Assembly: GCF_007754425.1 (NCBI RefSeq)
Contig: NZ_CP037452.1
Span: forward strand, 1,273,501-1,337,500
Origin: Gimesia fumaroli
Lineage (GTDB): Bacteria > Planctomycetota > Planctomycetia > Planctomycetales > Planctomycetaceae
DNA length: 64,000 nucleotides
Direction: 5' to 3'
Position numbers and translations under genes: made by a program
The notes under the pieces: generated by a model
Seen by the model: only the letters and a program-made list of their open reading frames with translations
The model's database searches: none
What the model was told of the DNA's origin: nothing
Shown here: positions 17,577 to 17,718 of the stretch, piece by piece
How the letters are laid out: the number at the start of each line of letters is the position of its first letter
How positions within the stretch are numbered: position 1 is the first letter of the stretch

Positions 17577-17718
17577 TGGCGAGTGTCAGATCGTGTCGGC
17601 CCCTGGTCTTAAAGACCGAGTTGTAGCTGGATCGCCACTCGCTTCTCATGCCTTAACCCGTACAGTCGCCAGAGCGGTGCACCACCACCAGCTCGTATTT
17701 GCAAGGAAGGGCCTTAGC
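17577..17718 (+). ncRNA. Candidate bridge RNA of the IS110 element
   Basis: In IS110-group elements the non-coding left end upstream of the transposase encodes a roughly 150-200 nt bridge RNA with target- and donor-binding loops (established for IS621). Here the same position holds nested structure: a long-range stem GTGGCGA (17576-17582) with TCGCCAC (17633-17639), an inner hairpin GGTCT (17605-17609)/AGACC (17613-17617), and a third hairpin GAGCGGTG (17672-17679) with CACC-A-GCTC (17686-17694). The Shine-Dalgarno AAGGAAGGG then precedes the ATG. Length, position and folding fit; guide loops have not been matched to target or donor, so this is inference. Confidence 0.5.

What the first reader, a model, noticed from the sequence alone, without database searches (positions are those of the whole stretch)
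17577..17718. Candidate bridge RNA upstream of an intact IS110 transposase
The 142-nt stretch before the transposase ATG folds into at least three stems (17576-17582 with 17633-17639; 17605-17617; 17672-17694), and the element has a long 5' and a short 3' non-coding end. That is the layout in which IS110-group elements encode a bridge RNA specifying target and donor. The transposase keeps the DEDD residues and the NRDSGT serine motif, so this could be a complete RNA-guided recombinase from a planctomycete. The guide loops were not matched to DNA.
Basis: partly seen in the sequence, partly recalled or inferred. Interest (0 to 1): 0.75.

Follow-up and report, generated by a model that had tools for sequence, protein, structure and literature searches.

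The report
RNA-guided jumping gene with matching targets

Summary
Window 17490-18690 is a 1201-bp IS110-group element: CT cores, 229-nt left and 16-nt right non-coding end, DEDD/serine transposase related to IS621 and ISCro4. The proof is evolutionary: 22 of 35 pairs show two-sided changes across 24 relatives; left and right target guides fit their own insertion sites better than swapped sites (0 of 20,000 permutations each); donor guides fit the element's ends. Eight copies in this chromosome carry three left guides. In this subgroup the right guide reads the GTAG tag of REP-like palindromes, the left guide their variable arm. A new member of a known kind. By-product: Rfam sRNA family sX15 is, by sequence, the antisense strand of such a bridge RNA, as Asr9 is antisense to the ISPpu9 5'-UTR. 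Transcription, binding and recombination were not testable.

The parts
17490..18690 (+). IS110-group insertion element, 1201 bp including one CT core; the second core copy is 17488-17489
   Evidence: Boundaries from 8 copies with different flanks in this genome
17481..17489 (+). Left target half TCGACCC plus CT core
   Evidence: Pairs with the left target guide 17596-17604, one G-T wobble
17541..17576 (+). 36-nt perfect palindrome: 5' stem-loop of the bridge RNA; also terminator-like on the minus strand
   Evidence: (arms 100% complementary); a long hairpin at the same place in 18 of 21 representatives, unrelated in sequence outside the close subgroup (by eye); (minus-strand terminator-like)
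17578..17643 (+). Target-binding loop, basal stem 17578-17585:17636-17643 and GATC:GATC 17589-17592:17630-17633
   Evidence: Covariation in 24 sequences; the GATC pairs hardly vary
17596..17604 (+). Left target guide TCGGCCC-CT (9 nt), complementary to the target bottom strand
   Evidence: 0 of 20,000 permutations reach the observed match
17605..17617 (+). Hairpin of the target loop
   Evidence: helix 2
17620..17626 (+). Right target guide GTTGTAG (complement of CT-ACAAC)
17647..17721 (+). Donor-binding loop; basal stem 17647-17651:17717-17721 includes the transposase start codon; CCC:GGG 17657-17659:17709-17711
   Evidence: helix 3 weak, 65.4% of cells; helix 4 invariant
17662..17669 (+). Left donor guide ACAGTCGC, matches right element end ACAGTCG-C
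17672..17694 (+). Hairpin of the donor loop
   Evidence: helix 5: 6 of 8 pairs with two-sided changes
17697..17705 (+). Right donor guide ATTTGCAAG, pairs with CTTGTAT of the left end in the pattern described for IS621
   Evidence: CAAG vs CTTG; IS621 pattern from passages
17703..17711 (+). AAGGAAGGG, likely ribosome-binding site inside the donor loop (inference)
   Evidence: Sequence
17719..18672 (+). Transposase/recombinase, 317 aa, DEDD plus serine
18673..18688 (+). Right non-coding end (16 nt)
18691..18697 (+). Right target half ACATTTG
17365..17395 (-). REP-like GTAG-tagged palindrome near the element, of the family that copies of this subgroup invade

Best explanation
A mobile element of the IS110 group, IS621 type, with its bridge RNA in the left end. 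Its transposase (four acidic residues of a RuvC-like domain plus a serine) works with an RNA of about 180 nt. [quoted passage not shown] The donor loop reads the joined ends of the excised circle in the same way. Recombination at CT inserts the circle. In this close subgroup the right guide reads the GTAG tag of REP-like palindromes and the left guide reads the variable arm of the palindrome, so guide mutations can move the element among repeat variants. Shown from sequence: ends, covarying RNA structure, guide-target and guide-donor complementarity, conserved catalytic residues. Inferred from IS621: transcription, RNP formation, cleavage by the serine, strand exchange. Inferred here: the donor loop buries the ribosome-binding site and start codon, so folding or protein binding should limit transposase synthesis, as proposed for the ISPpu9 5'-UTR.
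For: Eight full-length copies in the genome with different flanks. Structure: 89.9% of cells paired vs 76.7% shuffled, 22 of 35 pairs with two-sided changes, 0 of 500 shuffles as high; partner slides pair 28-44%. Left guide: 5.17 of 6 matches at own sites vs 3.43 permuted (17 element types; better of two registers taken for real and permuted alike); right guide: 3.6 of 5 vs 1.74 (20 types); 0 of 20,000 permutations each, also with one type per genome (13 and 16 types). Donor: of 13 printed rows with both sides, left guide 8/8 with the right end in 10 and 7/8 in 3; right guide CAAG/CTAG/CGAG goes with left end CTTG/CTAG/CTCG in 9 of 10 rows with both, the tenth (L105) being a misread of the script. 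Covariance model: the top 8 hits in the 7.7-Mb genome are the 8 copies, E about 1e-33, the next 0.09; it finds all 4 IS110 elements that I chose from 30 listed plasmid hits, in Pseudomonadota, Cyanobacteriota and Deinococcota, E 1e-16 to 1.7e-5, at the transposase start. Solved relatives ISCro4 5.7e-42 and IS621 9.2e-40.
Against: Target plus donor loop alone are not unusually stable. Two of eight copies here (L012, L014) do not match in the ungapped left register, L015 has one mismatch, and L014 breaks CTAC. By rank, the own site is beaten by no other type's site in 11 of 15 printed left guides but only 8 of 18 printed right guides (strict scores); right matches beyond CTAC are poor in several GTAG elements. 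The shuffles do not keep relatedness. No convincing promoter was found in the left end. The orthologous site in G001 lacks the element but is not a clean empty site. The donor basal stem pairs in only 65.4% of cells.
Confidence: 0.93

Rival explanations
1. The conserved structure is only a 5'-UTR that controls transposase translation (attenuator burying the ribosome-binding site), with no guiding role.
For: The start codon and AAGGAAGGG lie in the donor-loop stem; [quoted passage not shown]
Against: It does not predict that loop sequences change with the flanks of the copies or match the element's own ends. It can be true alongside bridging.
Confidence: 0.04
2. Guide-target matches are an artefact: the element inserts at a fixed motif (CCC-CT-AC of REPs) and the loops share that motif by descent.
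For: Within the close subgroup all guides and most targets share CCC-CT-AC, so part of the match is constant.
Against: The variable positions match too: ACGACCC with ACGACCC (L013), GTTGCCC with GTTGCCC (3 of 4 G007 copies, the 4th by wobble), GCCGCCC with GCCGCCC (L021). Outside the close subgroup, guides and sites change together (L108, L024, L023, L112, the G089 copies). Permutations with one type per genome still give 0 of 20,000.
Confidence: 0.02
3. The palindrome 17541-17576 is not part of the bridge RNA but a terminator for an antisense RNA (Asr9/sX15-like) or a DNA cruciform.
For: Terminator-like on the minus strand, 1 found vs 0.2 expected; sX15 matches the antisense strand 17573-17722 below its cut-off; symmetric arm changes, as at 17547 and 17570 in L015, could also come from template switching.
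Against: A 5' stem-loop at this place is part of the published bridge RNA, and a long hairpin stands there in 18 of 21 representatives (by eye). A minus-strand T-run is not seen in L108 and L121 (by eye).
Confidence: 0.25

Closest known systems
IS621 of E. coli (IS110 group)
   Same: DEDD plus serine protein (8wt6, E 9.2e-40), long left end with the RNA, CT cores, 5' stem-loop plus target loop plus donor loop, same guide polarity, 3-nt linker plus 9-nt left target guide, right donor guide pattern against CTTGTAT, insertion at the CCTAC end of REPs (papers: sections and passages)
   Different: Other guides and other REPs; the 5' stem-loop here is a 36-nt perfect palindrome (in IS621 the target loop already starts at nt 34); the donor stem closes on the transposase start codon (not checked for IS621); promoter not identified
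ISPpu9 of Pseudomonas putida
   Same: IS110/IS492 family, seven copies in REPs, 244-nt 5'-UTR proposed to bury the ribosome-binding site, antisense RNA Asr9 of close to 180 nt (passages)
   Different: The word bridge does not occur in that paper; no downstream Ssr9 was sought here; antisense transcription here is not shown
ISCro4 (PDB 9t56)
   Same: Best-scoring solved protein by sequence, E 5.7e-42
   Different: Its RNA was not compared
seekRNA of ISEc21 / ISEc11 (Siddiquee 2024)
   Same: RNA from the non-coding end selects the target; natural reprogramming reported between ISEc11 and ISXne4 (passages)
   Different: ISEc11 is of the IS1111 type with the RNA downstream; sequences not compared here

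Membership tests
IS110 group (IS621-type bridge recombinase) | DEDD RuvC-like domain and Tnp domain with conserved serine | tested here: met
   PF01548 E 4.1e-25, PF02371 E 6.5e-14; residues located
IS110 group (IS621-type bridge recombinase) | Left non-coding end much longer than right, RNA in the left end | tested here: met
   229 vs 16 nt; model hit at 17577-17727 (the window is a training sequence)
IS110 group (IS621-type bridge recombinase) | Short CT core at both ends | tested here: met
   All 15 copies of the close subgroup
IS110 group (IS621-type bridge recombinase) | 5' stem-loop, target loop, donor loop with covariation | tested here: met
   donor basal stem weak
IS110 group (IS621-type bridge recombinase) | Target guides complementary to target flanks | tested here: met
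   exceptions in the close subgroup: L012, L014, L015, L022
IS110 group (IS621-type bridge recombinase) | Donor guides complementary to the RE-LE junction | tested here: met
IS110 group (IS621-type bridge recombinase) | Promoter reconstituted at the RE-LE junction; RNA expressed | tested here: inconclusive
   Consensus scan of the integrated left end found none; the junction was not scanned; expression not testable
IS110 group (IS621-type bridge recombinase) | Clean insertion, intact empty site | tested here: inconclusive
   G001 has a REP-like palindrome and no element at the orthologous place, but the alignment has other gaps
IS110 group (IS621-type bridge recombinase) | RNA binding and guided recombination | not testable with these tools
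   Needs experiment
IS1111 group | Bridge RNA in a long right end, sub-terminal inverted repeats of 7-17 bp | tested here: not met
   Right end is 16 nt and the RNA is in the left end; inverted repeats were only searched at 12 nt or more, so shorter ones are not excluded
Asr9/sX15-like antisense RNA | RNA family lies antisense to a bridge RNA | tested here: met
   26 of 30 weak sX15 hits in 170 genomes antisense to bridge RNAs; a true sX15 gene (150.9 bits) antisense to a model hit of E 1.3e-15
Asr9/sX15-like antisense RNA | Antisense transcript made by this element | not testable with these tools
   No minus-strand promoter found by consensus scan of 17450-17760

The most novel reading that the evidence does not exclude
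IS621-type elements carry a second RNA on the opposite strand of their bridge RNA: the Xanthomonas sRNA family sX15 (RF02234) and Asr9 of ISPpu9 are the same thing, and the element in the window has it too, starting near the transposase start and ending at the palindrome 17541-17576, so that bridging (and transposase synthesis) is set by antisense pairing with the guides themselves.
Probability: 0.35. Interest if true: 0.65.

Novelty: new member of a known kind. Interest (0 to 1): 0.48.

Why it matters
It is a natural test of bridge-RNA rules: one chromosome holds eight sister copies with three left target guides, and most of their sites follow the guides. It suggests how such elements spread, by reading the fixed GTAG tag of REP palindromes with one guide and tracking the changing arm with the other. 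It offers new guide-site pairs for programmable recombination. As a by-product it gives a sequence-level identity to an Rfam sRNA family, sX15, and so a testable link between antisense RNAs and bridge RNAs.

Tried and rejected
Fold stability as evidence: kept only for the whole RNA with the palindrome; target plus donor loop alone are not above chance. Clean empty site: not obtained; G001 is orthologous and without the element but differs around the site. RAYT as REP maker: 4 Y1_Tnp matches in the genome, but a simple pattern found no REP of this type in the three loci inspected, so no link is claimed. Handshake pairing (first base after the right donor guide vs target -1): 5 of 9 printed rows with a known target base paired by the script; it misread L105 (TTAG taken instead of the CAAG in GCAAGGA), which would make it 6 of 9; not claimed. 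Rfam at gathering score: nothing in the window. sX15 checks that were weak or negative: none of ten loci listed it at E up to 1; of four plasmid loci only Deinococcus did (0.29); Caulobacter, 1 of 14 control genomes, has a match below the cut-off that I did not inspect; Pfam found nothing in the annotated ORF behind the Xanthomonas sX15, which is in another frame than the transposase-like start. Genome contigs gave one weak locus only.

Rows dropped before counts: one search examined 45 loci; one search examined 54, without L114, L115, L117 and L118 (partial matches); 50 entered (L102, L106, L113, L116 lacked the anchor or had it out of place). Of the 50, 44 had a usable left and 48 a right flank. 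L101, L119, L134 and L107 failed the automatic guide parser and were entered by hand. Shorter fragments listed were not used.

Full report
OBSERVATION. The element in the window has seven full-length sister copies in the same 7.7-Mb chromosome (nine PF01548 matches, eight of nearly the whole domain and one partial). Aligning the eight gives sharp ends: left ...TCGACCC-CT then TGTATCTGC..., right ...AAGACAGTCG-CT then ACATTT. The element is therefore 17490-18690 with CT cores, a 229-nt left and a 16-nt right non-coding end. The protein has D12, E56, D98, D101 and S237 at the motif positions, matches PF01548 and PF02371 and aligns over residues 8-315 to ISCro4 (E 5.7e-42) and IS621 (E 9.2e-40).

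RNA STRUCTURE. The 189 nt from 17535 to 17723 fold into three domains at z -5.4, 0 of 200 shuffles as stable: a 5' stem-loop made of the perfect palindrome 17541-17576, a target-type loop and a donor-type loop. Most of that excess is the palindrome: 17578-17723 alone has z -0.88, 61 of 300 shuffles as stable. The case rests on evolution. On 24 distinct sequences from 18 genomes (A1) the structure pairs 89.9% of cells against 76.7% in shuffles, with 22 of 35 pairs changed on both sides in at least one sequence, 0 of 500 shuffles as high (these shuffles do not keep relatedness); sliding the partners by 1-3 columns gives 28-44%. The donor basal stem, which includes the transposase start codon, is the weakest (65.4%). 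A long hairpin stands at the 5' stem-loop place in 18 of 21 representatives (by eye): related in sequence within the close subgroup, unrelated outside it; L104 shows none, L107 and L135 are cut by contig ends. Among the copies of this genome, L015 changes 17547 and 17570 together (T-A to C-G) and 17575 on one side only.

GUIDES AND TARGETS. Read against IS621 (passages), the left target guide is 17596-17604 (TCGGCCC-CT) and the right one 17620-17626 (GTTGTAG). Over 50 copies from 18 genomes (44 with a usable left flank, 48 with a right one) guides and flanks were compared by element type. Left: 5.17 of 6 at own sites, 3.43 when sites are permuted among 17 types (the better of two registers, for real and permuted alike). 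Right: 3.6 of 5 vs 1.74, 20 types. 0 of 20,000 permutations reach either, nor with one type per genome (13 types 5.11 vs 3.27; 16 types 3.59 vs 1.66). By rank the picture is less sharp on the right: no other type's site beats the own one in 11 of 15 printed left guides and in 8 of 18 printed right guides (strict scores). Examples outside the close subgroup: right guide CACAGAG with site CTCTGTG (L108), ACTAAG with CTTAGT (L024), GGGTCAG with CTGACCC (L023), GGGAGAG with CTCTCCC (L112). In the close subgroup (15 copies with 67-100% protein identity, from 5 genomes of the genus) the left guide fits 7 of 7, wobble included, in 11, 6 of 7 in L015 and L022, and fails in ungapped register in L012 and L014, whose left junction has one C less; CTAC is present on the right in 14 of 15 (L014 has CTAT). 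None of the 6,937 CT dinucleotides examined in the intact window (both strands) fits the window's guide as well as its own joined site does (7 of 7 with wobble on the left plus at least 2 on the right: 0 sites; own joined site 7 and 3).

DONOR. The left donor guide ACAGTCGC equals the right end ACAGTCG-C; where relatives have ACAGCCG at the end the guide has it too, except L105 (7 of 8); L121 and L123 differ at the core base (7 of 8). The right donor guide changes with the left end: CAAG/CTTG, CTAG/CTAG, CGAG/CTCG. ATTTGCAAG here against CTTGTAT follows the pairing described for IS621, with its G-T pair and two flipped-out U (passages).

NATURAL RETARGETING AND REPs. The eight copies of this genome carry three left guides (TCGGCCC in four, TCCGCCC in two, ACGACCC in two) and two right guides. 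Of 13 variable positions in the 229-nt left end, 5 fall in the 14 guide bases (Fisher P 0.0004). Copy L016 has a left end identical to the window's while its gene differs at 37 of 954 positions, so the RNA end is more constrained or homogenised than the gene. By eye, four of eight copies sit at the foot of a complete palindrome like GGGCNNACACATGGGTNNGCCC-CTAC (L010, L012, L013, L015), L009 and L016 at shortened relatives of it, L011 and L014 at none; the seven copies from G007, G009, G010 and G004 are all at such palindromes. A 16-base pattern of the palindrome matches 73 times in this genome with up to 2 mismatches (reversed control 4), its arms change in a compensating way, and 17 pairs of these matches lie in opposite orientation 89-122 bp apart; in the ten loci printed most outer ends carry GTAG. 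That is the anatomy of GTAG-tagged REPs and REPINs (passages). The core and right target half CT-AC are the GTAG tag read from the other strand, so the right guide reads the tag and the left guide the arm. IS621 likewise goes to ATCAGGCCTAC of E. coli REPs (passage). Other members use other repeats: in G089, 11 copies share nearly one site sequence; in G008, 9 copies share CTGACCCCTTT on the right.

MODEL AS INDEPENDENT TEST. Covariance model R1 finds the 8 copies as the top hits of the whole genome (E about 1e-33, next 0.09); several of these are training sequences. Among the 24 sources given it finds 5 of 7 related elements not used for training (L102 cut at its 5' end, L113-L116; not L106 or L118), 4 of 4 IS110 elements from Rhizobium, Rhodovastum, Gloeocapsopsis and Deinococcus plasmids (E 1.7e-5 to 1e-16, at the start of the transposase), 1 of 6 distant IS110 loci (0.011), and 0 of 6 others (three Y1_Tnp loci, two REP loci, L120).

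A BY-PRODUCT: sX15. Rfam family RF02234 (sX15, Xanthomonadaceae sRNA) matches the antisense strand of the RNA over the full model, 17573-17722, below the curated score (26.8 of 55 bits). In 170 genomes of the family all 30 matches up to E 1 are below the cut-off, and 26 of them lie at, and antisense to, a bridge RNA: all 8 copies here, G007 4, G030 3, G067 3, and one each in G010, G009, G004, G066, G060, G046, G159 and G014; the other 4 (G074, G047, G022, G093) do not (positions against transposases and model hits). Near-identical copies are not independent; 12 genomes contribute. Loci listed no sX15 match, and of four plasmid loci only Deinococcus did. Using the sX15 consensus I found sX15 on 9 Xanthomonas plasmid records. 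On the one I opened, the genuine sX15 gene (150.9 bits) lies antisense to an R1 hit of E 1.3e-15 (1,001 bases searched), about 30 nt before ATG AAT GGC ATC GGG ATT GAT GTG TGC AAG GCC AAG, which I read as an IS110 transposase start; no ORF of 40 aa or more begins there and Pfam finds nothing in the annotated ORF of another frame, so the gene looks decayed. So sX15 is by sequence the antisense strand of an IS110 bridge RNA. ISPpu9 has such an antisense RNA, Asr9, reported to favour transposase translation by opening the 5'-UTR (passages). My paper searches found no link between sX15 and IS110 nor any paper holding both Asr9 and bridge RNA; the library is open-access only. In the window the palindrome is terminator-like on the minus strand, which would end such an RNA at a similar length, but no minus-strand promoter was found.

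VERDICT. New member of a known kind, with unusually complete natural evidence for guide-site matching inside one chromosome and its relatives, and a lead on antisense RNAs. Papers: PMC11208160 (sections 5, 6, 12 and passages), PMC11208158 (section 5 and passages), PMC11187229, PMC8450116, PMC3733652, PMC6006769 and PMC6337395 (passages only). That thousands of bridge RNAs were already predicted in left ends by covariance models is in PMC11208160, section 6.

Noticed in passing
window 18868-18990, right of the element: An interspersed repeat of about 120 bp: 21 further matches listed in this genome (14 at E 1.1e-16 or better, 82-89% identity) and many in G001, in a capped list; a terminator-like hairpin follows at about 19060-19090 (by eye); no Rfam match at gathering score. 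Could be a multi-copy small RNA or a small mobile repeat.
   Followed up: no
window 17573-17722, minus strand; L209:1599-1757: Rfam sRNA family sX15 is by sequence the antisense strand of IS110 bridge RNAs.
   Followed up: yes
G000 chromosome, e.g. 5728444-5728569, 5595889-5596013: REPIN-like inverted pairs of GTAG-tagged palindromes, 17 pairs 89-122 bp apart in the list, whose arms differ between the two members but stay self-complementary.
   Followed up: partly
L108, L024, L121, L112, L109 5' stem-loop tips: In several relatives the long 5' hairpin shares a similar tip (AGCG..AGCGA) although the stems differ (by eye).
   Followed up: no
window about 18691-18725: Beside the insertion the window has about 30 nt that the orthologous element-free site of G001 lacks in the alignment, so the site differs by more than the insertion.
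   Followed up: no
G000 copies L009 and L016: Identical 229-nt left ends but 37 of 954 differences in the transposase gene: stronger constraint or gene conversion of the RNA end.
   Followed up: partly
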